Assembly: GCA_037501455.1 (NCBI GenBank)
Contig: CM074864.1
Coordinates: 57,851,001-57,915,000 of the forward strand
DNA from: Lantana camara
Taxonomy: Eukaryota; Streptophyta; Magnoliopsida; Lamiales; Verbenaceae
Direction of reading: 5' to 3'
DNA: 64,000 nucleotides
The translations under genes were made by a program, and so were the position numbers. The notes beneath the pieces were generated by a model that did not search any database, was not told where the DNA came from, and was given only the letters and a program-made list of their open reading frames with translations. This document shows, piece after piece, positions 7,978-63,698 of this stretch (position 1 is the stretch's first letter; the number at the start of each line of letters is the position of its first letter).

Positions 7978-10521
<2,544 letters not shown>

Positions 10522-11050
10522 GTAGTTCAATGATGGACAAAGAAACGTCCGAGTTTGTTAAAATTCATTTATGAGGTAGCAGTTGCGCGGTTAATTCTTG
10601 TAATTGTAGTGGAGTATAAATTTTGGTGTTTGTACCCTAGCATAGCATCTTGATTCTTTTTATGGTGTTGTTCTCACTGATTTTTCTTGCATCTTAAAGT
10701 CTCTCTCTCTCTGCATAAACATAGATAACTCTGATGGTGGGATAATTACACTGATGTGCTTTGGAAGTTTGACCTAAATACAAACCTGAGGAGAAGTTCA
10801 TTACATCTGGATTGATGAATTTCAATGATATCATATCAATACTTCACTTCAGGTTGCCTGTGACCCTAATTTCTCAAACGTATGGGGAGGTTTTTGTAAT
10901 TACTCTACACCTTAGGGTATGTAAGTGTAATTATCCCAATAATAAAATGCTGGCATAGAAATATCATTTAGCAAACACCAATTTTGATACTATTGACACT
11001 GCGTTCAAGAAATCTTACAAGTTAATAGAACAACAGAATCTGAATACTGC
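10522..11050. other. Convergent 3' regions of HEMC and REV7
   Basis: Both genes end here. An AATAAAA motif near 10939-10946 could serve as a plus-strand polyadenylation signal. A CT run lies near 10701-10713. No further gene is seen. Confidence 0.5.
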
Positions 11051-12117
11051 CTAATTCTTTGGCTCTGAGGGAGCTGGGTGTTCCAGATAGAGCTGCAACC
11101 CTAGAGGTTCACTGCTCATGGATTTAATTGGAACTATGAGTGGTGGTTGCTGCCACTGCTTTGCATCCGTCGGAATCCACATTTCTGCTTCTTTGCTTGT
11201 GCCCGCCTCAGGCAGGGCCCGGAAGTAACCCGTTATCTCCCACCTGCAATCTGCCGATAAACGAGCTATCAAGACTCATCCCATACATGAACTGTTTGTT
11301 GAAAAGATCATTTATCCCAATTTGCAGCTTACACAAAATGTCAATTGTAGGTTCCTTTCTACGATATGTAAACGAAGGAAGCATCAAGGAAAGCTTACTG
11401 TGTGGAAGAACCTTAGTTAGGGGCTCTGATACAGGCAGCTTAATCAAGAAGGATCTAAGAGAGAATTCCAAATCAGCTCGTTCCACCTTAGAGTTATACG
11501 ACTCATTCACATTAAGCTTGAACACAAATCTTTCAACAGGCACATCACCATCACCGAAGAAAATCACAGCAATTCTGTCCACCAAACCCTAATTGCAACA
11601 AAATAAAGAACAATTCTACAAAAGGGTTTAAGACAATTCATGGCTGAAATTGAAAATTACAAAGCCAAGCAGAGCAGCAAACTCAATAATTAAAGAAAGC
11701 ACCTTGTTGATGGAAGGAAGGAGCCCATTAACTGCAGAATGAATGTATTCATTCAGCTGAGGATGTCTGGCTTTATGAACCACCACATTCATGTATCGCC
11801 GCCTTTCGAAAGCTCCTACATTTTCAGCATCGAAATTAAGGTCGTCTCTGAAGAGAAATCATGAATCGCTATAGTTTTATTACCATTTGGGTAGATTCCT
11901 TTGAGGAAGACGATCGAAGTTATGGCAACCTCCAGGAACTCGACGAGAATCCGACCAATTTCGCCTGCGAAATTCGACGATAATTAATGGTTACAAAACG
12001 TATACATAGGAATTACGGGAAGGAACAGATGAAACCTTAATCGAAACAATTAGTTTCATGGGATGATTCTGAAATGAAAAGCTAACCTTGTGGAGTTCGA
12101 TTATCCTTGCGATCCAT
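11051..12117 (-). CDS. REV7: REV7 / MAD2B, HORMA-domain subunit of DNA polymerase zeta
   Basis: In the family, REV7 binds REV3 to form translesion polymerase zeta and acts in DNA-damage tolerance. Five minus-strand exons join in frame: 12117-12087, 11964-11884, 11815-11703, 11588-11399 and 11250-11051, total 204 residues, matching the family. The start is MDRKDNRTPQ followed by GEIGRILVEFLEVAITSIVF. Then come GIYPNGAFERRRYMNVVVHK, the PVERFVF strand, LRSFLIKLPVSEPL, CRWEITGYFRALPE, KEAEMWIPTD and the C-terminal SEPLGLQLYLEHP 'safety-belt' end typical of HORMA proteins. All introns are GT-AG. Open frames on the plus strand here are shadows. A Mutator-like element lies 261 bp upstream of the ATG. 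Confidence 0.93.
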
Positions 12118-12378
12118 GTTTGTCTTGGTGCTGAGAATCGAGTGCAGACTGCCGCCATGTTTTTCAATTTATGGTTGAGTAGTCGCTACGCATTTAAGAA
12201 CGATTTCTCTCGCGAATCCAAGAAAACGTGCTACTAATTTAGAAACCAAAATTTTGCGGTTCAAGCCTCAAGGTTCCGGGAAAGAGTTGATACCATCGCT
12301 TGGGGTAAACATAAAACGTCGTCGTTTTGTACATTTCTTTCCTATTTTACATTATATCTTGTTCTCAAAGCCTTAGAT

Positions 12379-13131
12379 GGCCAAATTGTCAATTTAGTCT
12401 CACGGATTGACTCCTCATCAATTTAGTTTCGTACTTTTGGTAAAATTTAATTTATTCCTAACTTTCAAAATTTTCAAAAGATACAGTGCCAAATGCTAAC
12501 AGACGTTAGAAAACTAACGGAATTAACGTGTTCGTCGTGAAAAAGAACACGTCTTTACGCTTGAAGAGGTAGAAGAGTATATAATCGATTCACACATTCA
12601 CACTAGCCCCGAAAATTTTACTCTTTGTCCCGTCAAAACCCTTAAATTCTTCCTTCGATTTTGTTGGATTTGTGAGGAAATTTCTAAAATTTCACTACAA
12701 TAATACTCTTACAAGCGTGTAACCGGCTAGAGATTTGAAGATTTCGACGATGTGGGTTTGTTCGGACTACCTCTCTTCATTGCCAAAACCTATCTTGCGG
12801 TAGGTTTCAAACTTTTTTTTCGTTTTTCCCTTTTTCGTTTTTTTTTTTTAAGTTTGAGAAAAAATTGCATAATGTTTGTTCATTTATAGAACGTTTTGGA
12901 AATAGGTTGAAATCCCATACCCCTGCAGCTTCGATTTTGCTGAAAGAAGAATTCTAGGGTTTTGGGGGGAGAAAGAGAAAATTTTTCGGGATTAGTGTGA
13001 ATCAACTATATACTCGATCAATTTTCTAACGTTTATTAACATTTGAGACTATATTTGTTGAGAATTTTAAAATTTGAGAGTAAATTGAATTCTACCAAAA
13101 ATACGAGAGGTACTAAATTGGCAATTTGGCA
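12379..13131. mobile_element. Non-autonomous Mutator-like element (MULE) with 9-bp target duplication
   Basis: The element is flanked by perfect copies of GCCTTAGAT at 12370-12378 and 13132-13140; a 9-bp duplication is diagnostic of Mutator-like transposons. The termini are inverted: GGCCAAATTGTCAATTTAGT at left against TGCCAAATTGCCAATTTAGT on the other strand at right. Similarity continues for about 100 bp through a (A/T)TTTTGGTA-AATT block. Internal sequence includes a TATA-like TATATAATC near 12580 and a short frame starting MWVCSDYLSSLPKPI near 12750 followed by a GT. That could be a captured or transposase first exon, which is inference. Confidence 0.85.
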
Positions 13132-14815: not shown

Positions 14816-17606
14816 TCAGAGCTTATCCTCGAATTCCGAGAGGGGTGTCATCTGTTCCTTCAACCCCTTCCTCTTTCTAATCTCAGTAACAAGGTTATTT
14901 GCCTGAGAACCTTGTTCCAACGGATCAGAAGACATCATATCCCAATGATCAAACACACACTGAGGGAAAGCCTGACCGGATGTTGCAGCCCTAAGAGTAC
15001 TTGAGAACCCAAACGACTCGATAACAGGCAAGTAAGCCTTGATGTTGTAGAGAGGGGTGCCGGGCCTCTGAAATTCTTCAAACACATGTCCACGTTTCTG
15101 GTTTAGAACACTGTAAATACCTCCAAGAGCTTGTTCTGGTGCTTGAATCTCAACAAGGTAGACGGGCTCCAAGAGACGGGGCTTAGCAGTGATTTGGGAA
15201 GCATAAATAACCCTTCTGGCTGTAGGAATAACTTGGCCACCACCTCTATGGATAGCATCAGCATGGAGAACAACATCACAAACCTCAAAGCAAATGCCTC
15301 GCATGTTTTCTTCAGCTAATGGGCCTTCCTTGGAAGCCCATTGAAATCCAGCTACAACAGAGTCTTTGATTTCATTAAGATATTGTACTCCCTTACACAT
15401 GTCAACCACCATGTTTGGACCGATTGTTTCAGGACCGAAGGCCCAGATCTTTTTGGCCAAGTCCTTGTCCCAACCATATTCTTCTGCTAAAATCTTTGAT
15501 CGATTCTTAGGGTCGTCTCGTGGACCAATACGCCCATCGTCAATGGCCTCAGCAAGACCTTCTTCCAATGGCCTAGCTTCCATGTAGAGACGGTTGTGTT
15601 TGTTGGGTGATTTGCTCATAACAGTACGGCACGACCTCTCAAGCACAGTTTCACGGAAGGACACAACCGGGTCAGATTTATTAATTTCTGCACCGCCCAT
15701 GAAATCCTCCACCAAATCTTTAAGACAGATTTCGAGATGAAGTTCTCCAGCACCAGCAACGATGTGTTCACCAGATTCCTCAATGGAACAGAGGACCATA
15801 GGATCAGACTTGGCCAAACGCTTCAGCCCTTCAACAAGCTTTGGGAGATCAGATGCAACCTTGCATGAGACAGCAACACGCACGACAGGGGAGACAGAAA
15901 ACTTCATGGCACGAATTGGATGTGCATCCACCTCCTTCTCGTTTGTGAGTGTAGCATTTTTGGTGATGAACTGATCAAGACCAACCAAAGCAACAGTGTT
16001 ACCACATGGTACATCTTCAACGGTTTCTTGCTTCTTGCCCATCCAAATAACAGTCCTCTGCACACTCTTGACATACAAGTCCTTTTTCTCTCCAGGGACA
16101 TAGTTGGGTCCCATTATTCTGACCTTCACACCAGTAGCGATCTTGCCAGAGAAAACACGACCAAAAGCAAAAAACCTACCCTTGTCAGAGGCTGGAATCA
16201 TTTTGGACACATAAAGCATGAGCGGCCCCTGAGGATCGCAGTTTCTGATGGCATTAGCATAACCATCATCAAGAGGACCCTCGTACAAGTTCTCCACACG
16301 GTACTTTTGAGCTGTAGCGGGTGATGGGAGATGGAAGATCATCATTTCCAGTAGGGCAGTGCTGGCAGGAAGCCAATTCTGCATCACACGTTTCATCAGT
16401 GCCTTCCCCATCAGTTCCTTTTCATCAGACTTCATCGTGACGCCAAGTTTCTGTAACATGGGCCATAACTTGTCCTTCTGATCATTCATGCAAGTGTTGA
16501 TGATCTGCTTGATGGGCTCATAGCAGAATTGAACGAAACCACGTTTGCACGTAGCACTGCCAGTATTTTTGCTAGTCCACTTCTTAGTGGCGGGGTCAAA
16601 GAAATTCTCTCCCCACAACCTTTCCATCATTTTCGACTCATCAACACCGAACTTGGAGGCGTACATCTTGGCGAAGTTGGTCAGAGTAAATGCCCAGCCG
16701 TGCAGACCAGCAGAGAAAGCAACTGTACCTTTCTCAGGGTAAACCTGGACATCACCAAGGAGGGGATCTTCATATGTAGCCATAATGACATTGGCATTCT
16801 CAATGACCCTCTGGAATGTCTGGTAGGCCTCCTCTCCATCAACCTGGAGCTCAAGGAAACACCTGTCCATCTTGTTAACGGTCAAGACTGGACGAATCCT
16901 TTCACCAAGGGCCTGTCGGAGGACAGTTTCTGTTTGGACACACACTCCTTCAATACAATCCACCACAACAAGGGCACCATCAGTAATACGAAGAGCAGCC
17001 GTCACTTCAGAAGAGAAGTCGACGTGTCCGGGAGAATCAATAAGATTGATGAGGTACTCATTGCCATTTCTCTCTCCCTTGTAGGTCTTCAATGATTCAT
17101 CAGACATTGCATAATACAACGAGATACCCGTTGATTTGATAGTGATTCCACGTTCAGCTTCATCGGCACGGGTATCGGTCATTCTAACATCACCAGCTAC
17201 TTCTTGGGCGATGATACCAGCAGCAGCAACAAGAGAATCAGTAAGAGTCGACTTCCCTGCAAAGACATGACGAATTTAGAATTAATCAACGGATTAAAAT
17301 AGAGATAATCTACACTCCGGGGTCACTTTTTCTGTTGAAGCATGAATTACTGCATTATAAACTGTATACAAATACCATACTAAATTTCCTGCTGTCTTAC
17401 CATGATCAACGTGGGCAATAACAGACATATTACGGATATTATGCTTGTAGTCCATAATCCTACGGAGCTCATCTGCAGTGAACTTCACCTGAAACATAAA
17501 TCAAGATTTTCTCGTTAATTAACATCACATATTATGCGAAATAACAAAACTAAACGTATATTCTGCGACATAACGAAACTAAAAGTATGATAGACATGCT
17601 TACCAT
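14816..17606 (-). CDS. EEF2: Translation elongation factor 2 (eEF2), complete
   Basis: A cytosolic GTPase that drives ribosomal translocation. The coding exons are 17606-17604 (the ATG alone), 17488-17401 and 17256-14816. They total 843 residues, the standard plant length, with all phases matching. Seen motifs are AHVDHGKS (P-loop, 26-33), [13 protein letters not shown] (switch I), DSPGHVDF (104-111), NKMD (158-161), and in domain IV the AIHRGGGQ loop whose His is the diphthamide site. The C-terminus is [10 protein letters not shown]. The P-loop codons are split by an intron between DHG and GKS. Upstream lie a non-coding exon and a TATA box. Nothing suggests loss of function. It is one of the best-supported genes here. 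Confidence 0.98.
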
Positions 17607-19138: not shown

Positions 19139-19143
19139 ATATG

Positions 19144-19985
19144 TGATGGTGCAAGAAATCTGGGTTTCTTAATGCAACAACACTTTAGAATTTGTATAAA
19201 AAGGGAAAGACCATCACAGGCAAGGGGGCCTCAGGATCTGGGTTTCCTTTTGAGCGTGGGTTCTTCCAGCTAGGATAACACCAAGAGTGCAAGCTACTAA
19301 GGTAGAGTTACTGTGGTGAGTGAAAAGCTTGAGAAGTTCAGTGGAAAATGCCCAGAACAGTGTGTATGGTTTTTATGCAGATGATCACTTGGGAGAGAAT
19401 GCATGGATTCTCTCCTATTTATATGTTAGGGATGGGGGTAGAGGGGTAAATTGACCATGTGGTCCCAAACCTGTGTTGCCCTAACACGCGTCAGCTTTTG
19501 GTGGGGTGAGAATGACATCCCTGAAAAGGGTGACGGCGTGTCAGGTGCCCGGTACACAGTACCTTTGTGTCAGAGGTTGTTGACGAGGGCGACGCGGGAG
19601 ACGGACCTAAGATCCTTTCTGCCGAGGTTCGGATCCAACGAAACGGGGTATGGATATGCCCGAGCGTTGGTGACGCTCGAAGAATGTATGGATGGTCTCC
19701 TCGCGGTATATGACCCTTGAGCGTCGAAATACCGAGCGTACTAGTGGGGCCCCCATGTGGGCGCTTCCCTGAGAAGGATAACCATGAGGGCCGCGATGCG
19801 AGCGTCAAACCCGTTGGTTACGGCCCTTGATCTGAAGGGTCACCCACTGACTGACGGATAACACTAACTGGCAATCGAGCGAGTGGAAGGCCCATGAGCC
19901 TATCAAGGCGAGCGCCAGGGCTCTGGTCAGCATTGTGTTGCCACGTGGACGGCTCTGATTTGAGAATGATTTTTAGGCCTCATCA
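19144..19985 (-). repeat. 3' LTR of element A (842 bp)
   Basis: Starts TGATGGTGCAAG and ends CCTCATCA on the plus strand, giving TG...CA on either strand. Read on the minus strand, a TATAAATAGG box lies at 19414-19424. Compared with the 5' LTR it has 15 extra bases just inside its left edge (TGCAAGAAATCTGGG after TGATGG); I saw no substitution elsewhere. The 89- and 105-residue open frames inside it are not genes. Confidence 0.95.
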
Positions 19986-19997
19986 TTTTGCCCCCCA
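19986..19997 (-). other. Polypurine tract of element A
   Basis: On the minus strand TTGGGGGGCAAAA directly abuts the 3' LTR start TGATGAGG. It would prime plus-strand synthesis. Element B has GAGGGGCAAAA at the same place, supporting the call. Confidence 0.8.
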
Positions 19998-20282
19998 AAT
20001 TCTGTAGTATCGCTTCGAGCGTACTGTAGAATTTATAAGGGAGGAGTCCTGAATGTCAAATATCCGAGGGACGAGAGATTACCCTCGAGGAGACTGCTGG
20101 CCTTCTGTAACGGACACAAACTGACATCGCATTAAATGCTGTCAAGTCCGCATTTAATGCAGAGTGGGAACGTGGGCGCGTGGACTCCGGGAGACATGAG
20201 GCGGTTACCAAAAGTGGGGGGTTTCCCAGGCGGGAAATGATTACATTTTTGAATTTTCAACCCTAATCCATGCTCCATCTCA

Positions 20283-20293
20283 CCTATAAATAA
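20283..20293 (+). promoter_or_regulatory. TATA box of the antisense gene in element A
   Basis: CCTATAAATAAG lies 284 bp before the antisense ATG and outside the LTR. It is followed by a leader with a possible intron donor TTAG|GTAAGAA at 20399. Element B has CCTATAAATAGG at the equivalent site on its own antisense strand, so the box is conserved. Confidence 0.6.
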
Positions 20294-20576
20294 GGGTTTG
20301 CAGGGCCTTGGAAGCTTTTTCACGCATTCAGACTTCCTTCAAGCATATTCATAGCAAGAGTCCTTTGCTCCGGCGAATTTCTTCTTCTCCACATCTTAGG
20401 TAAGAAATTCCTGATTCTTCTTCTTATTTTCCCCGTACTAACATTAGTCTTAGGTTGTGTGAGATAAACCCTTGAGGGAAGAACCGCTATCCACCACTGA
20501 ATTTGTTTCTGAAAGTTTATCCCCCTTTAAGCTCTCTGTTAGAAATCCCGTTTCCAAAAAAAATTGAAAACTGACC

Positions 20577-23441
20577 ATGGCCGGAAATCAAGCCGATGAC
20601 TATGTACGGGAGATTGAAGAGATGTCAGTGGGGAGTTCCTCCCCTCACGGCGACGTTCCCGTAGCTGTTCCTTTAATTAGGGCGCACTCAGGTGAAGTTA
20701 TTCCCATGGCGATATCGGTGGCCCAAGCCCCAGTTGACGCCGGGGAGGAAGAGGTGAACGCTGCTGTTCAAGGGATGAACGAGCGTGTTCCCGGTGAGAC
20801 GGATGACCTCTTTGAGGAGATGGACAATGTAATGGAGATGCAGAGGCAAGGGGAAAGAGTATTCCCTGTCCTGAATAGCGCCGTGAGACCTCAAGATCAT
20901 AGGATCACAGTGGCCATGGCGGCTCCCGAGGGTGAAGCGGGTCCATCCGGGCGTCCATTCGAGGCTGAACCCTCCAGAAGGCGTCAGAGGAGAGGCAAGG
21001 AGCCTGCCACTCGGGTAAGGCAAGACAACCGCCACCAGACTGACAGATCGCCCGACGAAATTGAAAGTATTCTGACCCTCGGTGATTTGGAAGAGCTGAG
21101 GGCGAAAGCGTATTGGGATGAAGTTGTGTTCCCCATGAGACTTCCTGAGGAGGGGGAAAGGGCCAATCGACCACCGCCTGGGATGATGGCGGTCTACTGG
21201 GACGCAGTTCTTGCTGGCGGTCTGAGGTTTCCAATCGCTCACGATGCCGTCATCATTTACCATCATCTAGGGCTTTGCCCTTCACAAATTCTTCCCAATG
21301 GCATAGCCCTAATCAACGCGTTCATAATAATGATGAGGGCCCTGGGCAAAGCACCCTCGATAATCAATTTTGACAGCTTAATCCAAGTAGCCCGCTCGCC
21401 ACGCTCGTCGCCCACAGATGGATTTTACTACGCCCAGGCCAAATCAGGCTTCAAGATGATAGATTCCCCGTCTACCTCGTATGGCGAGCATTGGAAGGAA
21501 AAATACTTTTTCGTGGGGGCTCCCGGGGGAATTTTTGGGGTTCACCGTCAATGGATGATTCACGGCGAGGGTCCATTGATTAGGGAGAGGATGAGGAACA
21601 AGGATTTTGAAGAGTGGGCGATGGGATTAGCCCTCGAGATGAGGGCTGAAAAGAAGTGGATTAAAGCGGAGACATTGGTGAAGAATGAAGGGGTGTTGTT
21701 CCGATATGGGTTATCTTGCCCCCCTGACATGATACTCAACCCTCCTACTGACATCATGACCCTCGACGGTTAGATTCTAGGAACTAACATCTCTAACTTT
21801 TAGAATAACTTTCTGACTTACAGTTATCAATGTTCTCTTGTTTACTCGATTCAAATCATCAATCATCTGACGCTTGTTTCCCTTCACTTGCAGGCATCCA
21901 AATTCTCTCTAGAGGCATGAATGCTGAGGCCTTATCCCGTATGCTGGGTGCCCAAGGACCCGCGGTTGACCCTCAACAACAGCAACCGCAGCAGAACCGC
22001 CCTCCGAGGGCGAGGGTAAACCGCCGAGCAGCGGGCCGAGGACAAGGAAATGCTCGAGGGGGCGCGGGGAACGTGGCTCCCCCCACGGGCCCCATTGAGG
22101 ATCTAACACTGGAAGGTGCCCACGAGGCCACTCCTCCGCCGGCGGCCCCCGTGGGCCCAATCTCCTTGAGTTCAAGCGGGTCACGGAACCGCTCGGGCGA
22201 GCCTGTCCGTATCCATGAAATCCTCCGTGCCGACCGTCAGGGGAAGAGAAAGAGGATGCCAGACTCTCTCCCCATTTCAGGCAAGGGTAAAGAGGTGGTC
22301 GTGGGCCACCGCGGCGAGGGCGGCGACACTTCATCTTCTGAGGATGAAGTATTTTGGAAGATAGGCTGCAAGGGTGACTCTCGCTATAAGCGGCAGCGGA
22401 CTGAGGGCCCTGTACTCCTAAAGAAGAGCGCTTACTCCGTCAACCTTGTCTCTGACATCGTTGGAAAACTACAATTTTCCGGCGATCATGACAAGCTGAA
22501 CAATCATGATGCCGCCCGCGTTGCGGATGATGCATGCCACGTCCTTTTGACGGTAATTCTGTATTCCTCTATATCAAATCTTCTTTTCTTCCTTCCAGGT
22601 TCGGATTATGACCCTCGTTTATTGCTTCCAGGAGGTAATCCCGAGGCTGAAAAACTTGCAAGGGCGAGCGCAAGCATATTCTGAGCATAAAGCCAAGTAC
22701 AAGAAATTGCTGCGCGTCTCTGACCCGGTCCAACTGCAAGAGGATTACAACAACCTCCACACTCAACTGACTACAGCCCAACGTGATTTGGACCAGGCGA
22801 GGGAGAACCTTCGAAAGACGGACGAGGCCTATCTTACCCTTGATGAGCGTCACAAGAAAATGAAGGAGGAACGAGACCAGCTGAGGGCTCAAAATGAGGA
22901 ACTGGGTGAGCAGTTAGCGGAGAGCACCCGCCAGAACGAGGCAGCCAACAAGGCCTTCGCTGATTTGCAGGGCAAAATACAGGGCTTGGAGGCGAAGGTA
23001 TCTTGGGAGGCGGTGAAGAAGTTCGTGCGCTCTAAGGCCTTTGTGTTCGCGGCCAACATCCAATGCTTCGATAATGCTCGACGCTTCTTTCACAAGGCGA
23101 TTGGGCAGATGGTGAGGTTTGGACTGGCCCCGGAAAGCGCTCGTTCCGACGCTCGTCTGCGCATGGATCTTGATGAGAACGGCGAGCCAATGGTCCAGGA
23201 GGAGGATCCCACGGATAATCTAGCGGAGCCTGAATATCAGGAATTGGTAGAAACACTCCAAAGGGAGTTCATCGCTGCCAACAGGGTAGATCCCGAGCCT
23301 CTCCTGATAGAAGATGAGGGCACTGTCATGGATGTCCCGGATGCTGAGGAACCCGGTGAGGCCCAAACTTCCGATGCTAACGTGTTGGCTCCAGTTCCCC
23401 TTTCGACTGCACCTCCTGAGCCCAACGCTCCGGCCCAGTGA
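20577..23441 (+). CDS. Spliced antisense gene of element A (plant 'putative gypsy-type transposon' domain plus coiled coil)
   Basis: Three exons join in frame: 20577-21768 (donor CGACG|GTTAGA), 21894-22552 (acceptor CACTTGCAG; donor ACG|GTAATT) and 22632-23441 (acceptor TGCTTCCAG). They give 886 residues. Residues about 185-330 hold a globular region (ANRPPPGMMAVYWDAVLAGG, HHLGLCPSQILPNG, GFYYAQAK) resembling the plant domain of Pfam family PF04195. Residues 400-600 are low-complexity, rich in Arg/Gly/Pro. Residues about 648-740 form a charged coiled coil, followed by an acidic tail. It runs opposite to gag-pol, between pol and the 3' LTR, as antisense frames do in Retand and RIRE2 relatives. 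Function is unknown. It is uninterrupted, and its intron 2 position is conserved in element B. Confidence 0.8.
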
Positions 23442-24512
23442 AGCCCTCGTAGCTGCCAATCTCTGGCCTTTGTCCATTTGAACACTTTCTTCCTTTTATG
23501 AACAATTTTTATTCTTGTATTTAATCCATCTTTTAGTCCCAGAATACATTGGATCCTTTATGTCGCTTTCTGATATATTTGCATCTCTTCTTCAATGCTC
23601 GAATGTCTGAATGTTATCTTACTTACTTTTAAATGATGAATGACGTTATTCCATCGTGCTCTCCGCTTTCATATTGATATCTGCTGTTTGAGCGTTTGCG
23701 ACTAGTGTGTAAAGTAGGCTAGGGCGTCTTTTACAACGGTCCTTTGACACTCATCACCATGCATATTAAGTTTAGATGCTCGCGACGTCGGGCGGTTGGC
23801 TTGTTGCAGGTACGGGCGCGAGGGTGACCCTTAGGAGGGTTCCCTGGCCACAGTAAAAATGAACTGTGTATTTGGACTTAGAAAACCTTTGAGGGAATAC
23901 AGGCGCGAGGGTGATCCTCGTGAATATTCCCTGGCTGTATTCTCCTTGAGGCTTGAATTGGAACTTAGGGAATCCCTGTAGGATTGGTTTAGTAGGGGTA
24001 AAAACGAGCGTAGTCGTAGTGTTAGTGGCATCCACTATTTACGAGCGTGCTCAATTGGGTAAAAACGAGCGTAGTCGTAGTGTTAGTGGCATCCACTATT
24101 TACGAGCGTGCTCTTACCCAATTGGATGAGGGTCACAGGGGATCCTTACGTGCACGAGCTAGAGCGGTGAATACTCAGCTGGCGTAAGTTGTGCGTTGGG
24201 CTCCCCGTTGTCGGACGCGCTCAAAATTAGGACTTCATATCACAAACTGTTCAAACTGTTATAGGTGGATGATCCTCAACACCTGGACAGCGTAGTTTCG
24301 GAATGATTGGAGTTTTGCTTAGGCTTTTCGACGTGGAGGATGCTCGACACGGAGTAGGCCCCTTGTCGCTCGAATTATTAAATAAAAATAATCAAAGCAA
24401 GCAAATAATAAAAACAAAGAGTTAAATACTTACTGTTACATAAATGCATTTTTTGGAAATGATTACAATGCGCTTTCATGCCACAAACGGGCCATTACAA
24501 AGAAATTGAAGT
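23442..24512. other. Noncoding spacer between the convergent gag-pol and antisense genes of element A
   Basis: About 1.07 kb between the two stop codons. It contains repeated GAGCGT, CGAGGG and GGCGCGAGGGTGA motifs, including two copies of the last near 23814 and 23903, plus a perfect 61-bp tandem duplication. Probable polyadenylation region for both transcripts; no reading frame is supported. Confidence 0.6.
23999..24114. repeat. Two tandem copies of a 61-bp unit in the spacer of element A
   Basis: Copies begin TAAAAACGAGCGTAGTCG at 23999 and 24060 and share GTGTTAGTGGCATCCACT and ACGAGCGTGCTC without visible mismatch. The second copy is cut short after GTGCTC. Confidence 0.9.
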
Positions 24513-27500
24513 CTACACGTAAAACCTCCTGAGGTTGCATGCATTCCATGGCCTAGGGAGTCGCTCGCCTTGCAAAGTTTCCAATAGGTAGGTGTTGTTC
24601 GCTCGTACCTGGATGACTTTGAAGGGGCCTTCCCAGTTAGGGTCCAACTTACCTACGTGTTTGGAGACTTCAACTTTTTTGAGGACCAAATCCCCTAGCT
24701 GGAATGTCCTTTCCTTGACACGTTTATTGTAATGGCGAACAACGGTTGCTTTGTATTTGTGGATACGTGCCCAAGCAGCGTTCCTCTTCTCATCCAGCAA
24801 ATCTAACTCGAGCGCCCGATTGGCCTCGTTAGCAGCAGGCTCGAAATAGGCAACGCGTGCGGATTCTTGAGCAATTTCCGCAGGTATCATGGCCTCGGAG
24901 CCGTACACAAGGGAATAAGGGGTTTCCCCCGTTGCCGCTCGGGGAGTAGTACGGTACGCCCACAAAGCTCCCTGGAGTTCTTCAGCCCATTCTCCCTTCT
25001 TACTCTCGAGCATCCTTTTCAGATGTTGGAGTATGGTTCGGTTGGTCACTTCAGCTTGACCATTAGCTTGAGGGTGACCCACGGAAGTGAATCGTTGTTC
25101 GATCCCTAATTCATAGCACCAATCTCGCGTGTCAGCAGCGATAAACTGTGAACCGTTATCCGAGATGAGCACCCTCGGGATGCCGTATCTGCAGATGATA
25201 TTTTTCCAAATAAAATCCCTCACAACTTTGAACGTTATCTTAGCGACCGCTTCTGCCTCAGCCCACTTGGTGAAATAATCCACGGCCAGTATTACGAACT
25301 TCTTTTGCCCGACCGCCATTGGGAGAGGCCCCACAATATCAATGCCCCATTGATCAAAAGGCCAGGAAACGTCAATAGGAGTCATTTGAGCTGCCGGCAG
25401 CTGGGGAGTGTTGGAGTGGAACTGGCACTTGGGACATTTCTTGGAATATTTAATGGCATCTTGCAGTACTGAGGGCCAATAGAATCCACTCCTTAAGATT
25501 TTCTTTGCCAAGATTCGTCCGCCTGAGTGGTTCCCGCAACTCCCATTATGTACATGCTCTAAAACTTCTTTAGCCTGCGAGGGTCTCAAACATCTCAACG
25601 GTGGTCCTAGGAAGGATCGCTTGAATAACCGACCCTCAGCATCTAAGGAGAAGCGAGGGGCTTTACATCTGATCTTCCGAGCCTCAACTTTGTCGCTCGG
25701 GCAAGTTCCGTTCTGGAGGAATCTGACAATTTCATCAAGCCAACAAGGCTCGGATGGGTCAATCACGTGCACTTCTTTCGAAGGTTCGCCTTTGCTTATC
25801 AGTGGCTCCTCCGTTCTCAGAAATGTAACAGCGCGTTCACTACCACCATCCAAGGCAGACGCAAACTTCGATAGAGCGTCAGCATATTCGTTTTCCGCCC
25901 TCGGAATTTGCAAAAGATGGAATTCCTTGAACTTGGCTATCTCTTTCTTGGCGCTCGACAAGTACTGTGCCATGGTGGCTTCTCGAGCCTCATAACTACC
26001 GTCAATTTGACTCGCGATCAACTGCGAATCAACGTATGCTGTGACACGAGTGGCCCCATTTTGGAGCGCAATCCTGAGCCCTTGGATGAGAGCCTCATAC
26101 TCAGCTTCGTTGTTGGTGACTTGAAACGCCAGCTTGATTGCGTAGTCGACTTCCGCCCCAAGGGGATCCCTGAGGGTTACCCCGGCTCCCCCCCCTTGTG
26201 AGGTCGAGGAGCCATCAGTATGCAAAAGCCATAAACCATCGTCCGCCTGCGGCTCAGTTTCCAAATTGAAACGTTCAACCAACAAATCGGCTACTGCCTG
26301 AGCCTGTATGGCTGTACGGGGCTCGAAGGAGATATCAAACTGACTAAGCTCAATCGCCCATTTAATTAACCTTCCCGAAACATCCGGCTTAGATAAAACT
26401 TGTCTGAGCGGTTGATCTGTGAGCACTGTGATGGAGTGAGCCTGAAAGTATGGCCTCAGCCTTCGGGATGCATTAACGAGCGCAAAGGCAAATTTCTCAA
26501 TTTCCATGTATCTTTTCTCGGCTCCCTGTAGAGTCTTGCTCAGGTAATACACCGGCATATGCTTACGCTCGCGGATTGCTACGAGGACAGCGCTCGTGGC
26601 TTCTACAGAAACCGAGAGGTAGATAAACAAGTTCTCTCCTGGGATTGGCTTGGTCAACAAAGGCGCGCTCGACAGGTACTGTTTCATGTCCTGCAAGGCC
26701 TTTTCGCAATCCTCGTTCCACGTGAAATTCCGAGCGTTGCGCAAAATTTTAAAGAAGGGCAAGTTTCGGTCCGCTGAGCGGGAGATGAACCTATTTAGTG
26801 AAATGATCTTTCCCACGAGCACCTGGACCTCTCTCAGATTACGAGGGGAGGGTATGTCCAGGATGGCTCTAATCTTCTCGGGGTTTGCCTTTATGCCACG
26901 TTGACTAACCATGTATCCCAGGAATTTACCTCCTCGAACGCCAAAGGTGCATTTTGATGGATTCAACTTCATTCCGTAGCGACGAAGGATGTCGAAAGTC
27001 TGCTTGAGATCTTTCAGATGGGAGCGTTGGCGCTCACTCTTGACTATCATATCATCCACATATACCTCCATAGATTTTCCAATCTCGCGCTCGAACATCC
27101 TATTGACTAGCCGCTGATAAGTCGCTCCCGCGTTTTTGAGTCCAAATGGCATGACTTTGAAGCAATAAACACCCAAATGCACAATAAACGAAGTTTTGGG
27201 GCGATCCTCGGGCGCCATAAAGATTTGATAATATCCTTGAAAGGCGTCCATCATACTCATGAGTTCGCATCCAGCTGTGGAATCTACCAACTGATCTATC
27301 CTCGGAAGCGGATAATGGTCTTTGGGGCACGCTTTGTTGAGGTCCGTAAAGTCGTTGCACATACGCCACTTATTGGCACTTTTTGGAACAAGCACCACAT
27401 TACAGAGCCACTCGGGATATTGGATTTCTTCTATGTACTGAGCGTCAAGCAACTTGCCAACCTCTTCTTCGATGACCCGTTTCCTGAATCCATGAACGTC

Positions 27501-30500
27501 CCTCTTCTTCTGTTTGATGGGCTTGAAGGTTGGATCCACGTTCAGTCTGTGAACAATGACGCTCGGATCTATCCCTGTGAGATCAGAAGCTTTCCACGCA
27601 AAAACGTCTATATTCTCCCTTAGGAAGTCGATCATCAAGACTTGCGAGGGCCCATCCAGGCTCGAGCCAATCTGGGTTGTTTTATCCGGATTCCCAGGCT
27701 CCAATTCGACGGTCAAAAACTCTTCTGTGGGTTCAATCCGAACCTCCGGCCTCGGTGCTTCTAACGCTCGTTTCTTTCCAGTGAGAGTATTCTTGGGCTC
27801 ATCCCCCTCGTTTTCTGAGGAAGAACCCTCGACGGCCCCTGGTGGCCCACTCTCTGAGCACTGAACATCCCCAGTGGTCCTCTTTTTATTCTTCTTCCGG
27901 TATAGCTTGGCTCTTTTACGCTCGGGGCCATCTTCGTTTAACTCTGGGAAATCAACGGACTTCTTAGTAGACCCAGGCTGGATGGACTGTTTGGGTTTAT
28001 GGCTTCGAAGCGAGAGTATGTAGCATTCCCAAGCTTCCTTGACGTTACATAGAATTTCGCCGGTACCCTCGGGGGTTGGGAACTTGACTTTTTGACGATA
28101 GGTGGAAATTACAGCCTTGAAATCCACGAGGGCTGGACGCCCAATGATGATGTTGTAAGGCAGATCCACCTCGACGATGGTGTAGAGAACGCTCAAAGTT
28201 TTTCGCTGTGGGGCGCGACCAAAAGAGGTGGCCAAGCGAATCTGTCCACGAGGGACGATCTCGGAACCTCCAAACCCTACGAGGGCAGTTCTGAGAGGTT
28301 CGAGGGGGATGTTTGTTATATTCATTTGTTGAAACGTTGAGTACGGGAGAACGTTCACAGAGCTTCCATTATCAAATAAAACCCTCTTTACAGTGTGGTT
28401 ATGAACGTCTAAACTAACCACCATGGGACAGTCAGAGGTTTTTCCTATCCCATGGGGTGTTACAATGTGTTCAAGATCTTTTTCGGTAAACCCTATAACA
28501 TCATCCTCCTTTGAGCGCGATGAGCTGTCCACGGAGAGCACTGAGCGAGGGAGTGTCGGCCTTTGGTTATAGCTCCGTACATGGCGGCGGCGGGAGGCAT
28601 TGGAGTCACCTCCCGAGGGTCCACCTGCGATCATGTGAATGACCGCAAAGGGCTGGTTGTCCATATCCACCCCCTTCCCTTTATTGCGCTCGCTGGTCTC
28701 AGGGCGCTGGCGACGAGGGCTTCGGGAGCGTGAACGGCTTCTCCTTCTTTCGAGCGCCCGTCCCGCGCAATGTTCATCGTACCCTTCTAGCACCTTCACA
28801 AACTCTTTGAGGTGCCCCCCAGCAATCAGCCGCTGGATTTCCTTCTCCAGGTGGCGGCATTCATTAGTGTCATGCCCCTTCTGCTTGTGGAAAGCGCAGT
28901 ATTTTCCCGAGCGCTTCTGTGCCTCGGTCTCCCTCAGCTTGGGCGGCCTTTTAAACAGCTTCTGGTCCGCCAGAGAATATACTTCGGCAATTGGGCGATT
29001 GAGGGGGACACGCTCGAGCCTCCGCGGGGGAGAGGAATGACGACGAGCGGGTACTGGGCTGCGGCGGTGACTTCGGTGGGGCTCCACTTTGTCCTCGTGG
29101 TTTCTGGTGGGGCGAGGGGCATTTGCCATCTTCTGTTCCCTCGCTATGTACATGTCCTCGAGGGTAAAGAAGGAGTCTGCAATCTCCCGAATTTCCATCA
29201 ACGAACGTGGCTTCTTCTTGGCCACTTCCTCCACAAATTCTTTGCTGACGTAATGCTTCATGTTGATGGCACCGAACAGCACGTGCCTCAAAAAGTCCAT
29301 CGAGGGCTTTTCTACTAGCAGAATCTCTTTGTTGAAGCTCCCCATGAAGGACCGGAGGGTCTCGTTCGGCCCTTGGACCAGGCTATAAAGAGCGGTCGCG
29401 GCCGGGGCTGGTGCTTTCAGCGAATTGAAGTGGCTGACAAATGCATCCGTCAAGTCATAATACCCTCGGATTGAGCGCGGAGGGAGCTTTTTGTACCACT
29501 CTTGGGCCATTCCAGTGAGGGAAGTGACAAATACCTTGGCCCAGTAGTTGTCTGGATGGTCGTACAGGTGCATTAGATGCACGAAATGGTCCAGATGTTC
29601 GGCTGGATCCGTGGTTCCGTCGTATCTGTTAATTGAAGAGGGAATTTTACCCTTCCCTGCGCGGGTCATTAGAACTTCCTCGACGAGGGGGGAATCGCCC
29701 ACCATGATCCTGTAATCCCGCTCGTCGGGGTCTTCATAGCTAGCCTCTCTTCTTCGGTGGGAAATGGGGCTGCGTGGTCGCCGAGCGTCTCTGGCCTTGG
29801 ACCTCTCGTCCCCCTCACGGGGGGCGTGAGACCGCGCTCGAGAGAGCTGCTCTACCACGTTTTGGAGCCCTCGAATTTGGTCTTGTACAGCTGCTAGCTG
29901 AGGGTCACCGACATTTCTGCGGTTTGCCCTCCTTGTGGCCCTTGACTGGACCTCTTCATCGTTTCCGGCCGCCTCATCTCGAGGAGCCCTGTCATCTCCG
30001 TCAACGGGTCGTTCTTGCTGGACCCTCGGTGGGGCTTCATTTTCTTGATTCGGAGCAGGTGGGGGAGGTTGTTGGGCCCGTAGAGCATTTTGGGCCATTG
30101 TCAAAGGATGTGCAGGGAGCCCGCCCAAGGGTGGGGCTATCCGAGCGCCCGCGTATGAAGGGAAATAAGCCATGGTGAAGTGCTCCCAGGCATTCTGTAC
30201 AGCTTGGCTCTCGCACTGCGCGTACAACGCCTGAAGTTGTTGCGTAGTGAGTTGGGGCATCTCCACCCCCTGTATTTCCCTTGGCACTGCTAGAGGGAGG
30301 TTCAGTGTCCCCACTTGATATGGAGGGACCAAAGGTATCATTCCCGGCGTTGTTCCAGGCATTACTCCGGGCTGTGTGAGCGCGTATCCTGGCGGCGGCA
30401 TGGCCATAGGATATACGCCAAAATGGGAGGCAGGGACGTTTGAGGCGAAAGTTGGGGGGGGAGGATTGGAACCTGATCCTCCTGCTTCATTCCCAGTTGG

Positions 30501-30641
30501 GAGGGGTACAGTGGTATCAACGTTTCCGGCCGCAAGGGGCGGTGCCCCTCCGGCGAGAACAGGGTTCTCAGCGTTTTCTCCGTTGGTGGGAGGAAGACCT
30601 CCCCTGTTCCCTAAAGTTCCAGATCTTGTGGCAGTAACCAT
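24513..30641 (-). CDS. Intact gag-pol polyprotein of element A
   Basis: One uninterrupted 2042-codon frame starting MVTATRSG. Approximate layout: Pro-rich leader 1-300; retrotransposon gag domain 335-500; zinc knuckle CAFHKQKGHDTNEC near 581-594 (C-H-H-C rather than C-C-H-C); aspartic protease with DNGSSVNVLP near 757; reverse transcriptase 1035-1205 with catalytic YVDD; a first RNase H-like region 1330-1455; a second, archaeal-type RNase H 1470-1600 with HTDGSS, NNEAEYEAL, VDSQL and ADALSK; integrase 1690-2000 with a zinc-binding HHCC (final CPKC) and D-D-E residues in GIDIVG, SDNGSQF and HPQANGQAEV; and a GPFKV module at the C-terminus. A second RNase H is characteristic of Tat-clade elements. 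There is no stop or frameshift between gag and pol. Confidence 0.96.
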   Translation of the reverse strand: MVTATRSGTLGNRGGLPPTNGENAENPVLAGGAPPLAAGNVDTTVPLPTGNEAGGSGSNPPPPTFASNVPASHFGVYPMAMPPPGYALTQPGVMPGTTPGMIPLVPPYQVGTLNLPLAVPREIQGVEMPQLTTQQLQALYAQCESQAVQNAWEHFTMAYFPSYAGARIAPPLGGLPAHPLTMAQNALRAQQPPPPAPNQENEAPPRVQQERPVDGDDRAPRDEAAGNDEEVQSRATRRANRRNVGDPQLAAVQDQIRGLQNVVEQLSRARSHAPREGDERSKARDARRPRSPISHRRREASYEDPDERDYRIMVGDSPLVEEVLMTRAGKGKIPSSINRYDGTTDPAEHLDHFVHLMHLYDHPDNYWAKVFVTSLTGMAQEWYKKLPPRSIRGYYDLTDAFVSHFNSLKAPAPAATALYSLVQGPNETLRSFMGSFNKEILLVEKPSMDFLRHVLFGAINMKHYVSKEFVEEVAKKKPRSLMEIREIADSFFTLEDMYIAREQKMANAPRPTRNHEDKVEPHRSHRRSPVPARRHSSPPRRLERVPLNRPIAEVYSLADQKLFKRPPKLRETEAQKRSGKYCAFHKQKGHDTNECRHLEKEIQRLIAGGHLKEFVKVLEGYDEHCAGRALERRRSRSRSRSPRRQRPETSERNKGKGVDMDNQPFAVIHMIAGGPSGGDSNASRRRHVRSYNQRPTLPRSVLSVDSSSRSKEDDVIGFTEKDLEHIVTPHGIGKTSDCPMVVSLDVHNHTVKRVLFDNGSSVNVLPYSTFQQMNITNIPLEPLRTALVGFGGSEIVPRGQIRLATSFGRAPQRKTLSVLYTIVEVDLPYNIIIGRPALVDFKAVISTYRQKVKFPTPEGTGEILCNVKEAWECYILSLRSHKPKQSIQPGSTKKSVDFPELNEDGPERKRAKLYRKKNKKRTTGDVQCSESGPPGAVEGSSSENEGDEPKNTLTGKKRALEAPRPEVRIEPTEEFLTVELEPGNPDKTTQIGSSLDGPSQVLMIDFLRENIDVFAWKASDLTGIDPSVIVHRLNVDPTFKPIKQKKRDVHGFRKRVIEEEVGKLLDAQYIEEIQYPEWLCNVVLVPKSANKWRMCNDFTDLNKACPKDHYPLPRIDQLVDSTAGCELMSMMDAFQGYYQIFMAPEDRPKTSFIVHLGVYCFKVMPFGLKNAGATYQRLVNRMFEREIGKSMEVYVDDMIVKSERQRSHLKDLKQTFDILRRYGMKLNPSKCTFGVRGGKFLGYMVSQRGIKANPEKIRAILDIPSPRNLREVQVLVGKIISLNRFISRSADRNLPFFKILRNARNFTWNEDCEKALQDMKQYLSSAPLLTKPIPGENLFIYLSVSVEATSAVLVAIRERKHMPVYYLSKTLQGAEKRYMEIEKFAFALVNASRRLRPYFQAHSITVLTDQPLRQVLSKPDVSGRLIKWAIELSQFDISFEPRTAIQAQAVADLLVERFNLETEPQADDGLWLLHTDGSSTSQGGGAGVTLRDPLGAEVDYAIKLAFQVTNNEAEYEALIQGLRIALQNGATRVTAYVDSQLIASQIDGSYEAREATMAQYLSSAKKEIAKFKEFHLLQIPRAENEYADALSKFASALDGGSERAVTFLRTEEPLISKGEPSKEVHVIDPSEPCWLDEIVRFLQNGTCPSDKVEARKIRCKAPRFSLDAEGRLFKRSFLGPPLRCLRPSQAKEVLEHVHNGSCGNHSGGRILAKKILRSGFYWPSVLQDAIKYSKKCPKCQFHSNTPQLPAAQMTPIDVSWPFDQWGIDIVGPLPMAVGQKKFVILAVDYFTKWAEAEAVAKITFKVVRDFIWKNIICRYGIPRVLISDNGSQFIAADTRDWCYELGIEQRFTSVGHPQANGQAEVTNRTILQHLKRMLESKKGEWAEELQGALWAYRTTPRAATGETPYSLVYGSEAMIPAEIAQESARVAYFEPAANEANRALELDLLDEKRNAAWARIHKYKATVVRHYNKRVKERTFQLGDLVLKKVEVSKHVGKLDPNWEGPFKVIQVRANNTYLLETLQGERLPRPWNACNLRRFYV

Positions 30642-30689
30642 GATTCAAGACTTGGGTGTTACTTTTCAACTAGCTTTCAGCGGAAGAAA

Positions 30690-30701
30690 CTGGCTATACC
30701 A
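30690..30701 (-). other. Candidate primer-binding site of element A
   Basis: On the minus strand TGGTATAGCCAG begins 10 nt inside the 5' LTR edge. It starts TGG as a tRNA 3'-CCA complement must, but I cannot match it confidently to a particular tRNA, and it differs from the TGGCGCCGT of element B. Confidence 0.35.
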
Positions 30702-30711
30702 AAGATGGTGG

Positions 30712-31538
30712 TGATGGTTTCTTAATGCAACAACACTTTAGAATTTGTATAAAAAGGGAAAGACCATCACAGGCAAGGGGGCCTCAGGATCTGGGTTTCC
30801 TTTTGAGCGTGGGTTCTTCCAGCTAGGATAACACCAAGAGTGCAAGCTACTAAGGTAGAGTTACTGTGGTGAGTGAAAAGCTTGAGAAGTTCAGTGGAAA
30901 ATGCCCAGAACAGTGTGTATGGTTTTTATGCAGATGATCACTTGGGAGAGAATGCATGGATTCTCTCCTATTTATATGTTAGGGATGGGGGTAGAGGGGT
31001 AAATTGACCATGTGGTCCCAAACCTGTGTTGCCCTAACACGCGTCAGCTTTTGGTGGGGTGAGAATGACATCCCTGAAAAGGGTGACGGCGTGTCAGGTG
31101 CCCGGTACACAGTACCTTTGTGTCAGAGGTTGTTGACGAGGGCGACGCGGGAGACGGACCTAAGATCCTTTCTGCCGAGGTTCGGATCCAACGAAACGGG
31201 GTATGGATATGCCCGAGCGTTGGTGACGCTCGAAGAATGTATGGATGGTCTCCTCGCGGTATATGACCCTTGAGCGTCGAAATACCGAGCGTACTAGTGG
31301 GGCCCCCATGTGGGCGCTTCCCTGAGAAGGATAACCATGAGGGCCGCGATGCGAGCGTCAAACCCGTTGGTTACGGCCCTTGATCTGAAGGGTCACCCAC
31401 TGACTGACGGATAACACTAACTGGCAATCGAGCGAGTGGAAGGCCCATGAGCCTATCAAGGCGAGCGCCAGGGCTCTGGTCAGCATTGTGTTGCCACGTG
31501 GACGGCTCTGATTTGAGAATGATTTTTAGGCCTCATCA
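30712..31538 (-). repeat. 5' LTR of element A (827 bp)
   Basis: Matches the 3' LTR base for base by eye, except that 15 bases are missing near 30717. The deletion edges share a GGT repeat (ACC on the sense strand), suggesting a small microhomology deletion. A promoter TATA motif (TATAAATAGG on the minus strand) lies at 30968-30977. This LTR drives gag-pol leftwards. Confidence 0.95.
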
Positions 31539-31619
31539 ATATGCAAAAATTAATACTCTTTTTTCCCTTGTGTAAGTGGATTTGGGGTAAAAAAAAAAAA
31601 AATTTGTTGATATATATTT

Positions 31620-32045
31620 TGGAGTATTATTCAGAAATGATAAAGTATACAAATTTAAAACTAGAGTATTATTCATAAAAGTTAAAGTACTTACATTTCA
31701 AATTAGAAGTATTATTCATAAAAGTTAAAAATACCTATATTTATAATTTGAGTATTATTCAGAAACGTTAAAGTATCCAAATTTAAAATTAGAATACTAT
31801 TCGCAAAAATTAAAGTACTCATGTTTACAATTGAAATATAAGAAGAAAAAACAAAGAAAAAAGAAAAGGAAAAAAATATTGTTCGTAAAAGTTGAATTAC
31901 TTATGTTTTAAATTAGAGTATTATTCATAAAAGTTAAAGTACCTAGGTTTATAATTTGTGTTATTCAAAAACGTTATAATATTCAAATTTAAAATTAAAG
32001 TATTATTTGTAAAAGTTAAAATATTCAAGTTTAAAATTAAAGTAT
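31620..32045. repeat. Degenerate minisatellite, about 42-bp units
   Basis: About nine diverged units share GTATTATTCATAAAAGTTAAAGTA followed by AAATTTAAAATT-like text, with one A-rich interruption near 31835-31880. It sits beside the right edge of element A, in the pre-insertion intergenic DNA. The rest of 31544-32424 is AT-rich without genes. Confidence 0.7.
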
Positions 32046-32424
32046 GAAAATAAAAAACAAAGCATAGAAAAAAAGAAAAAAAGAAAAAATTAAGAGTATA
32101 ACGGTTAATTTAAGTTTTTGGGAAGTGAACAAAAATTAAGGTTTGAAAATTAAGAAGTTTGTACTGAAAATTTTAGCATTCAGAGGCAAAGTAATATTTC
32201 TTCCACTACTAAATATTTAAAACTAATTGTCCCCATAAGAGTTATAATTATTGTAGCAGATATAAATATTCATGTTATTTTGAATGGGGAAATGATAGGG
32301 TATCTGTAGCGGGATCCATTGTGGTTTGTAAAAAGTTAAAGAAAAAAATCCTATAATATGAAATCTAATTTAGAAACTCCTATAGCTTGAAAAACTGTGC
32401 ATGTCAAACCCTGAACCCCTCAGT

Positions 32425-52394: not shown

Positions 52395-52690
52395 AGGGAA
52401 TTAATGCGGTTTTGGAATATTAAATTCAAAACGCAATCATTTCCCGCCTAGGTAATCTCCCACTTTTGGGAACCGTCACCCACATCCCAAGATTCACGCG
52501 TCGTTTCCTGAAAAGTCGCACCCACTCGCCCATCAGCATTAAATGCAGGACTCTTCGAGTAGTCAATTGAAGGGACAACATTTAATGCATATTCAGAAGA
52601 AGACTTCCCCGTACGCAATCTCTCCTCGCGAGCGCCACCCTCGGGATCTGGAAAGATTTGAAATGTACAGTCCTCATCACTAAAGACTAT

Positions 52691-52707: not shown

Positions 52708-52828
52708 TGATGGGGTAGAAACACGCTCGACCCACGTTTCGGCACGTGGCTCGGTCAGTTGGCCCATATTTTGATACGAGGCGTTATCAGTGATGACCGC
52801 ATGGCAACTTGGTCTCCATGAGCGTACC
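52708..52828 (+). repeat. Truncated 3' LTR of element B (first 121 bp)
   Basis: Aligns with 40851-40971 with scattered substitutions, mostly transitions (for example AACGTTTCGGTACG against CACGTTTCGGCACG). It stops abruptly after GAGCGTACC, where inverted element C begins. Confidence 0.85.
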
Positions 52829-58931: not shown

Positions 58932-58939
58932 TCTACAGG

Positions 58940-63660: not shown

Positions 63661-63683
63661 AGAATCTGGGGACCAGATTCTTC

Positions 63684-63697: not shown

Positions 63698-63698
63698 T

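What the first reader, a model, noticed from the sequence alone, without database searches (positions are those of the whole stretch)
20283..23441. A promoter-equipped, three-exon antisense gene inside a young retrotransposon
Seen: an 886-codon spliced frame runs opposite to gag-pol with its own TATA box, GT-AG introns that preserve frame, and no disabling change. A decayed homologue in element B (49506-52164) has the same N-terminus, the same second intron position, a coiled-coil third exon and a TATA box at the same place. Known: antisense ORFs occur in Retand, RIRE2 and Grande relatives, and PF04195 proteins are common in plants. Inference: introns on this strand survive retrotransposition because the genomic RNA is the opposite strand, and conservation across diverged copies means the protein is selected. 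It could be a regulator, a structural partner of Gag or an anti-silencing factor.
Basis: partly seen in the sequence, partly recalled or inferred. Interest (0 to 1): 0.85.

Follow-up and report, generated by a model that had tools for sequence, protein, structure and literature searches.

The report
Spliced antisense gene in plant retrotransposon
A young plant retrotransposon carries, on the strand opposite to its replication genes, what looks like a real intron-containing gene for a nuclear-type helper protein; such antisense genes are known in this group of elements, but the gene structure and the conserved promoter worked out here sharpen what can be tested.

Summary
Element A (19163-31538, minus strand, LTRs identical over 823 bp) is a Retand-type Ty3/gypsy retrotransposon. 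Between pol and the 3' LTR it carries an antisense gene, 20577-23441 (+). A diverged, decayed element (B) in the same window keeps both introns at the same positions and phases, the TATA box and the start. The coding parts evolved under purifying selection (pN/pS 0.56, bootstrap 0.51-0.61; 0 of 176 neutral simulations that low). All four introns are poorer in G+C than any same-length exonic stretch of their gene. New here: a 55-nt promoter block conserved between A and B, with the window's only two TTTCCCGC (E2F-type) sites, 48-50 nt from the TATA box. The spliced TRP28-like plus coiled-coil model and the E2F-type promoter were not found in what I could read. Function is inferred: most likely a nuclear, oligomeric, nucleic-acid-binding regulator. 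No RNA evidence was available; the host genome could not be searched.

The parts
19163..19985 (-). 3' LTR of element A (TGATGAGG...AAGAAACC on the minus strand), 823 bp
   Evidence: identical to 30716-31538; the only two differences in the 829-bp repeat are at 19986 and 19988, outside the LTR
30716..31538 (-). 5' LTR of element A
24513..30644 (-). gag-pol, one ORF of 2043 codons stop to stop: gag, protease (weak match), RT, RNase H, extra RNase H (RVT_3), integrase
19986..20001 (-). polypurine tract beside the 3' LTR (AATTTGGGGGGCAAAA on the minus strand)
   Evidence: read from sequence; not tested otherwise
20202..20256 (+). 55-nt conserved promoter block, 85% identical to B 52475-52422
   Evidence: only BLAST match (E up to 0.01) between the LTR-to-ATG stretches of A and B
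20230..20237 (-). TTTCCCGC, E2F-type site (reads GCGGGAAA on +), 48 nt from the TATA box
   Evidence: one of only two in 64 kb, the other at the same place in B; E2F label from recall, binding not tested
20285..20292 (+). TATA box TATAAATA
   Evidence: aligned with the TATA box of B at 52390
20577..21768 (+). exon 1: N-terminus shared with B, basic cluster RRRQRR, TRP28-like domain (residues 210-267)
21769..21893 (+). intron 1, phase 1; its first 20 nt are kept in B apart from one extra nt; in-frame TAG directly after the donor
21894..22552 (+). exon 2: low-complexity linker (by eye) and conserved basic cluster KRKRMPD
22553..22631 (+). intron 2, phase 0
22632..23441 (+). exon 3: about 100-residue helix (coiled coil), conserved C-terminal part, stop codon
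49506..52164 (-). decayed homologous antisense gene of element B (introns 51203-51103 and 50490-50418; TATA at 52390)
52440..52447 (+). TTTCCCGC site upstream of the TATA box of B, 50 nt away

Best explanation
The feature is a functional antisense accessory gene of a Retand-type Ty3/gypsy retrotransposon: TATA promoter, three coding exons, two introns, 886 aa. Steps supported by sequence: the gene structure is shared with a deeply diverged element, all three exons have been under purifying selection, and a promoter block is conserved. Steps inferred: host RNA polymerase II transcribes it from the internal promoter in dividing cells, when E2F is active; the introns are removed from this transcript only, while the genomic RNA, being the opposite strand, keeps their complement, so every new copy inherits them. 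Splicing joins a TRP28-like domain to a coiled-coil C-terminus. The protein oligomerises through the coiled coil, enters the nucleus by its basic clusters and binds nucleic acid of the element or of chromatin, to regulate transcription or assist nuclear steps of transposition. My probabilities: real selected gene 0.9; spliced as drawn 0.85; promoter at this TATA 0.75; E2F control 0.4; nuclear regulator or co-factor acting in trans 0.5.
For: Open joined frame of 886 codons; the exon 1 frame is longer than anything in 1000 Markov simulations. Both introns at identical positions and phases in B; protein similarity runs up to the GT and AG borders. Intron 2 has no similarity above shuffles (z -0.2) although its borders are kept. 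All four introns are lower in G+C (0.34-0.38) than every same-length exonic window of their gene: 0 of 2289, 0 of 2427, 0 of 2185, 0 of 2269 (overlapping windows). pN/pS over 747 codons 0.56 [0.51-0.61]; exons 0.51, 0.62, 0.57; 0 of 176 usable neutral simulations (of 180 run) reach 0.56, lowest 0.84. A nucleotide alignment not guided by protein gives an excess of third-position differences in each exon. In B no in-frame ATG precedes exon 3 codon 85, although the conserved block begins at codon 1. Promoter block and paired TTTCCCGC sites. Exon 3 helix 32-133: block means of pLDDT 87-97 for residues 31-110, 72-80 for 111-130. Conserved basic cluster KRKRMPD.
Against: No RNA evidence at all. PF04195 score below the curated cut-off; the TRP28 structure model was unusable (pLDDT 32), so DNA binding is only the published prediction for the domain. 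Only two elements were compared, and synonymous sites are saturated, so dN/dS is not a reliable number. In the forced nucleotide alignment the introns differ at 55 of 105 and 39 of 73 sites, less than third codon positions (0.60-0.65), so intron drift is shown by the shuffle test of intron 2 only, not by that count. The protein changes faster than gag-pol (pN/pS 0.15-0.33 in the parts compared with B and C). Two searches of a protein collection that does hold plants found no relative; they rely on shared 5-residue words. E2F control rests on one short motif noticed after the fact. Donor sites look weak against the recalled plant consensus (CG|GTTAGA, CG|GTAATT).
Confidence: 0.55

Rival explanations
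1. Separate antisense ORFs (TRP28-like ORF and Smc-like coiled-coil ORF) rather than one spliced gene, as published ORF lists count them.
For: Vicient 2025 counts 104 antisense ORFs of 600 bp or more in 63 clusters and lists TRP28 and Smc domains separately. In A an in-frame ATG precedes exon 3 inside intron 2 (the MTLVY reading) and exon 2 has an in-frame ATG at 21917. An in-frame TAG follows the intron 1 donor in both A and B (read by eye).
Against: Phase-matched GT-AG borders in both elements; A+T-rich introns; the conserved start of B exon 3 lies before its first in-frame ATG; conserved residues continue up to the exon borders.
Confidence: 0.12
2. The antisense RNA, not the protein, is the functional product: it pairs with genomic RNA and controls copy number through dsRNA or small RNAs.
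For: Discussed in PMC7264820 for such transcripts; any antisense RNA here would be complementary to the 3' part of the genomic RNA.
Against: The codon-position pattern and pN/pS of 0.56 need selection on protein. Both functions can coexist.
Confidence: 0.1
3. The protein is an anti-silencing factor or a partner of Gag.
For: Fast divergence fits an arms race. Passages of PMC11728184 propose a role in RNA-silencing modulation for extra-ORF proteins of sunflower Tekay elements, which are 5' ORFs of a different lineage.
Against: No motif match here supports either role; basic clusters and the published nuclear localisation of Grande gene23 favour the nucleus, which does not exclude a silencing role.
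Confidence: 0.12
4. A captured host gene or passenger without function for the element.
For: Introns and an own promoter resemble a host gene.
Against: The same gene sits in the same place in two elements diverged to saturation; the published survey finds TRP28 in 97% of Retand clusters and reports no similarity outside TEs. Host genes were not searched here.
Confidence: 0.04

Closest known systems
Antisense TRP28 (PF04195) ORFs of Retand-lineage elements (Vicient 2025, PMC11963269)
   Same: Position between pol and 3' LTR, antisense orientation, TRP28-like domain (by eye 5 of the 6 conserved positions, G21, P25, P46, N47 and F55, at the published spacing; L34 is Y), coiled-coil (Smc-type) similarity in the same region in some clusters; pol-3' LTR region 4.5 kb, LTR 0.82 kb, interior 10.7 kb, all within the published ranges.
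   Different: Here the TRP28-like part and the coiled coil are modelled as exons of one 886-aa gene. The word intron does not occur in that paper's main text. The Pfam score is below the cut-off.
gene23 of maize Grande (Gomez-Orte 2013; known to me only through PMC7264820 and the reference title)
   Same: [quoted passage not shown] nuclear product reported for gene23.
   Different: No sequence comparison was possible; exon structure of gene23 not seen; promoter here is inferred from conservation, not assayed.
Ogre intron (sense strand, spliced from a subset of transcripts; passage in PMC6317226)
   Same: Intron used by a Tat-clade element.
   Different: Ogre's intron lies in the sense gag-pol transcript; here both introns are on the antisense strand.
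HBZ of HTLV-1 (antisense gene; mentioned in PMC11963269, promoter in PMC7264820)
   Same: Works alike in outline: a retroelement gene on the antisense strand with a nuclear product.
   Different: No homology claimed; the HTLV antisense promoter is inside the 3' LTR, here it is internal.

Membership tests
Retand lineage (Tat clade, Ty3/gypsy) | extra RNase H (aRH) between RNase H and integrase | tested here: met
   RVT_3 at 1476-1595 between RT_RNaseH 1337-1436 and Integrase_H2C2 1688-1743; feature shared by Ogre and Retand according to a passage of PMC6317226; equating RVT_3 with aRH is from recall
Retand lineage (Tat clade, Ty3/gypsy) | antisense ORF between pol and 3' LTR | tested here: met
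Retand lineage (Tat clade, Ty3/gypsy) | sizes of LTR, interior and pol-3' LTR region within published ranges | tested here: met
   823 bp, 10,730 bp and 4,527 bp from the coordinates; ranges 315-1,194, 7,380-12,869 and 2,933-6,566
Retand lineage (Tat clade, Ty3/gypsy) | position in a reverse-transcriptase tree with named Retand references | not tested
   no tree built; the 120 listed relatives carry no lineage labels
Retand lineage (Tat clade, Ty3/gypsy) | 5-bp target-site duplication at this copy | tested here: not met
   flanks CATAT and CAGAT differ, and the LTR does not end in CA; concerns this copy, not the lineage
Pfam PF04195 Transposase_28 | score at or above the gathering cut-off of 26.2 bits | tested here: not met
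   20.7 bits (whole protein), 22.1 bits (exon 1); called TRP28-like, not filed as a member
Grande gene23-type antisense gene | transcription from an own promoter | not testable with these tools
   TATA box and conserved block only
Grande gene23-type antisense gene | nuclear product | not testable with these tools
   basic clusters at residues 135 and 515 only
spliced gene | conserved GT-AG borders and phases, A+T-rich introns | tested here: met
spliced gene | intron interiors without conservation | tested here: inconclusive
   intron 2 z -0.2, intron 1 z 4.4 with its first 20 nt kept
spliced gene | spliced RNA | not testable with these tools
   no transcript data on hand

The most novel reading that the evidence does not exclude
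Across Retand elements the antisense TRP28 and Smc-like ORFs are exons of one intron-containing gene, driven by an E2F-responsive promoter. The element would thus make a chimeric DNA-binding, coiled-coil nuclear protein in S-phase cells, and partial retention of intron 1 (a stop codon sits at its donor in both elements) would switch between a TRP28-only and a full-length form.
Probability: 0.25. Interest if true: 0.7.

Novelty: new variant of a known kind. Interest (0 to 1): 0.45.

Why it matters
Antisense genes of Retand elements are widespread but without known function, and the survey I read counts their ORFs singly. A spliced gene model changes which protein should be expressed and tested, and explains how introns can persist in a retrotransposon. 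The paired TTTCCCGC sites give a direct test of whether such elements time an accessory protein to dividing cells.

Tried and rejected
Leader intron: A and B share TTAG|GTAA in the 5' leader, but by eye the last acceptor in B before the ATG would give an intron of only 52 nt; not included. Alternative acceptor (exon start 22599): 46-nt intron, not supported by B. tblastn E-values as evidence of selection: rejected, because neutral simulations at the same divergence also gave E<1e-10 in 94 of 100, and an antisense frame control reached 264 bits against 473; the codon-position and pN/pS tests replaced it. Structure of the TRP28-like domain: model unusable, no fold search made. Structure of exon 3: a long helix, no fold search made. 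Weak Pfam hits of exon 3: the 25 shown of 32 are all below their cut-offs and look like generic coiled-coil matches. PDB by sequence, exon 1 only: one chance match (E 0.75). Bacterial promoter scan does not apply to a plant. Rfam: none at gathering scores. Relatives of exon 1 in viral contigs and prokaryote contigs, of RT in viral contigs, and of the promoter block as an exact pattern in viral contigs: none; these collections are not expected to hold plants. My B gag-pol comparison left out the largest match (42202-46239) because of a coordinate limit I set, so it covers 698 codons, RT to integrase; the gag and protease figures come from element C (589 codons).

Full report
What is there. Element A lies on the minus strand, 19163-31538. 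Its LTRs (19163-19985 and 30716-31538) are identical over 823 bp; the two differences in the 829-bp repeat lie just outside the LTR. At a recalled plant rate of 1.3e-8 per site and year this means an insertion most likely younger than about 0.15 million years. One gag-pol ORF (24513-30644) holds gag, a weak protease match, RT, RNase H, an extra RNase H domain and integrase in that order. That order is shared by the Ogre and Retand groups according to the passage of PMC6317226 that I saw. With the antisense gene between pol and the 3' LTR, Retand is the better fit. No reverse-transcriptase tree was built.

The antisense gene. The exon 1 frame, 401 codons stop to stop, exceeds the longest run in 1000 first-order Markov simulations of the region (maximum 297).

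Test by a second element. Element B (plus strand; antisense gene 52164-49506) is decayed: it has internal stops in exons 2 and 3, changes frame within exon 1 and lacks the part matching the TRP28 core. Its antisense gene still aligns with A along most of the protein, in six pieces of 30-59% identity (three further weak matches, E 0.04-0.56, elsewhere or in another frame were ignored). Introns 1 and 2 sit at the same residues and in the same phases (1 and 0), with GT and AG at every border. Intron 2 shows no similarity beyond shuffled controls (z -0.2); intron 1 shows some (z 4.4), its first 20 nt being kept apart from one extra nt in B. All four introns are poorer in G+C than every exonic window of their length in the same gene. 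These are the marks of true plant introns, without RNA proof.

Selection. Between A and B, differences by codon position are 0.447, 0.375 and 0.660 (747 codons). pN/pS is 0.56 (bootstrap 0.51-0.61). dS is saturated (above 2 or infinite), so I do not use dN/dS. The same pipeline on neutral simulations gave 0.84 at the lowest in 176 usable runs of 180; four runs at 49.4% divergence left fewer than 50 codons and were dropped. A nucleotide alignment that does not use the protein gives 0.409/0.346/0.597 for exon 1, 0.457/0.490/0.628 for exon 2 and 0.468/0.413/0.654 for exon 3; the introns differ at 55 of 105 and 39 of 73 sites there. Since B has presumably been decaying without constraint since its insertion, the constraint before that was probably stronger. 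Gag-pol is more constrained: pN/pS 0.15-0.21 against B (698 codons of RT to integrase) and 0.27-0.33 against element C (589 codons of gag and protease). Against this, one pair of elements is a thin sample, and tblastn scores alone do not show selection.

Promoter. From the LTR edge to the ATG, one stretch of non-coding DNA matches between A and B by BLAST at E up to 0.01: 55 nt, 85% identical, 20202-20256. It ends about 30 nt before the TATA box. The stretch behind the stop gave no match. The block contains GGCGGGAAA, the complement of TTTCCCGCC, which fits the plant E2F consensus (recalled). TTTCCCGC occurs exactly twice in the window, both strands counted, once in each of these two blocks, 48 and 50 nt from the TATA box. 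The motif was noticed after the fact, and binding is untested. Passages in PMC12477314 and PMC11656987 report E2F sites in transposable elements of Brassica; those passages say nothing on antisense promoters. Searches (3 papers; 73 papers, 12 listed) showed in their listings no paper on E2F control of an antisense retrotransposon gene.

The protein. Exon 1 carries a TRP28-like stretch (PF04195, residues 210-267), below the gathering score. By eye it keeps five of the six well-conserved positions given in PMC11963269, at the published spacing. Exon 2 is by eye a low-complexity linker with the basic cluster KRKRMPD, conserved in B. Exon 3 is predicted as a helix of about 100 residues (32-133), with block means of pLDDT 87-97 up to residue 110 and 72-80 after it, followed by a conserved C-terminal part. 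The protein collection holds plant sequences (3190 matches to RT among 7956 scored; many of the 120 listed are named plants), yet gave no relative of the antisense protein in two searches. That method needs shared 5-residue words, so fast divergence explains the gap as well as rarity.

What is known. Vicient 2025 (PMC11963269; parts 1-3 of 5 read, plus a term search) makes antisense TRP28 ORFs a characteristic of Retand elements and predicts DNA binding for the domain. Vicient and Casacuberta 2020 (PMC7264820; parts 1 and 2 of 3 read, plus a term search) report an own promoter and nuclear product for Grande gene23 and ask for a search for antisense and spliced transcripts. The word intron occurs in neither main text. 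Eight paper searches on these ORFs, their splicing and their domain brought up no spliced antisense gene of this type in their listings; one search listed 20 of 43 papers and 15 of 532. Of further papers I saw passages only: PMC6317226, PMC12786077, PMC12477314, PMC11656987, PMC10606437, PMC11728184. The original papers on Grande, RIRE2, Retand and on extra ORFs (Gomez-Orte 2013, Ohtsubo 1999, Kejnovsky 2006, Steinbauerova 2011) were not read, so I cannot exclude that splicing is described there.

Verdict. The sequence tests that could be run support a real gene. It belongs to a known kind, with a structure that I did not find described: two antisense introns joining a TRP28-like domain to a coiled coil, and a conserved E2F-type promoter. 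Its function stays inferred. The host genome could not be searched: 16 requests were answered as busy.

Noticed in passing
21769-21788 and 51203-51183: The first 20 nt of intron 1 (GTTAGATTCTAGGAACTAAC) are kept in B with one extra G, although synonymous sites are saturated; an in-frame TAG lies directly after the donor in both. Could mean regulated intron retention.
   Followed up: partly
20400 and 52270: Shared TTAG|GTAA in the 5' leader, a possible leader intron; in B it would be 52 nt or shorter.
   Followed up: partly
19140-19163 and 31539-31560: No target-site duplication seen at element A, and its LTR ends in AAGAAACC rather than CA.
   Followed up: partly
23996-24113: Perfect tandem duplication, 61-bp unit and 1.9 copies, between the antisense gene's stop and the end of pol.
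   Followed up: no
52726-55030 (-): Gag-protease fragments of a third related element (C) abut the 3' LTR of B, whose match to the 5' LTR ends at 52828.
   Followed up: partly
56296-64000 (+): Another Ty3/gypsy element with 99% identical LTR pieces, running off the window end; gag and pol in separate ORFs.
   Followed up: no
14816-17275 (-): Host gene: elongation-factor-like GTPase (EFG/EFL1-type domains) in one long open frame.
   Followed up: no
8672-9211 (+): Host gene exon: porphobilinogen deaminase N-terminal domain.
   Followed up: no
31622-32083: A+T-rich tandem repeats beside the 5' LTR of element A.
   Followed up: no
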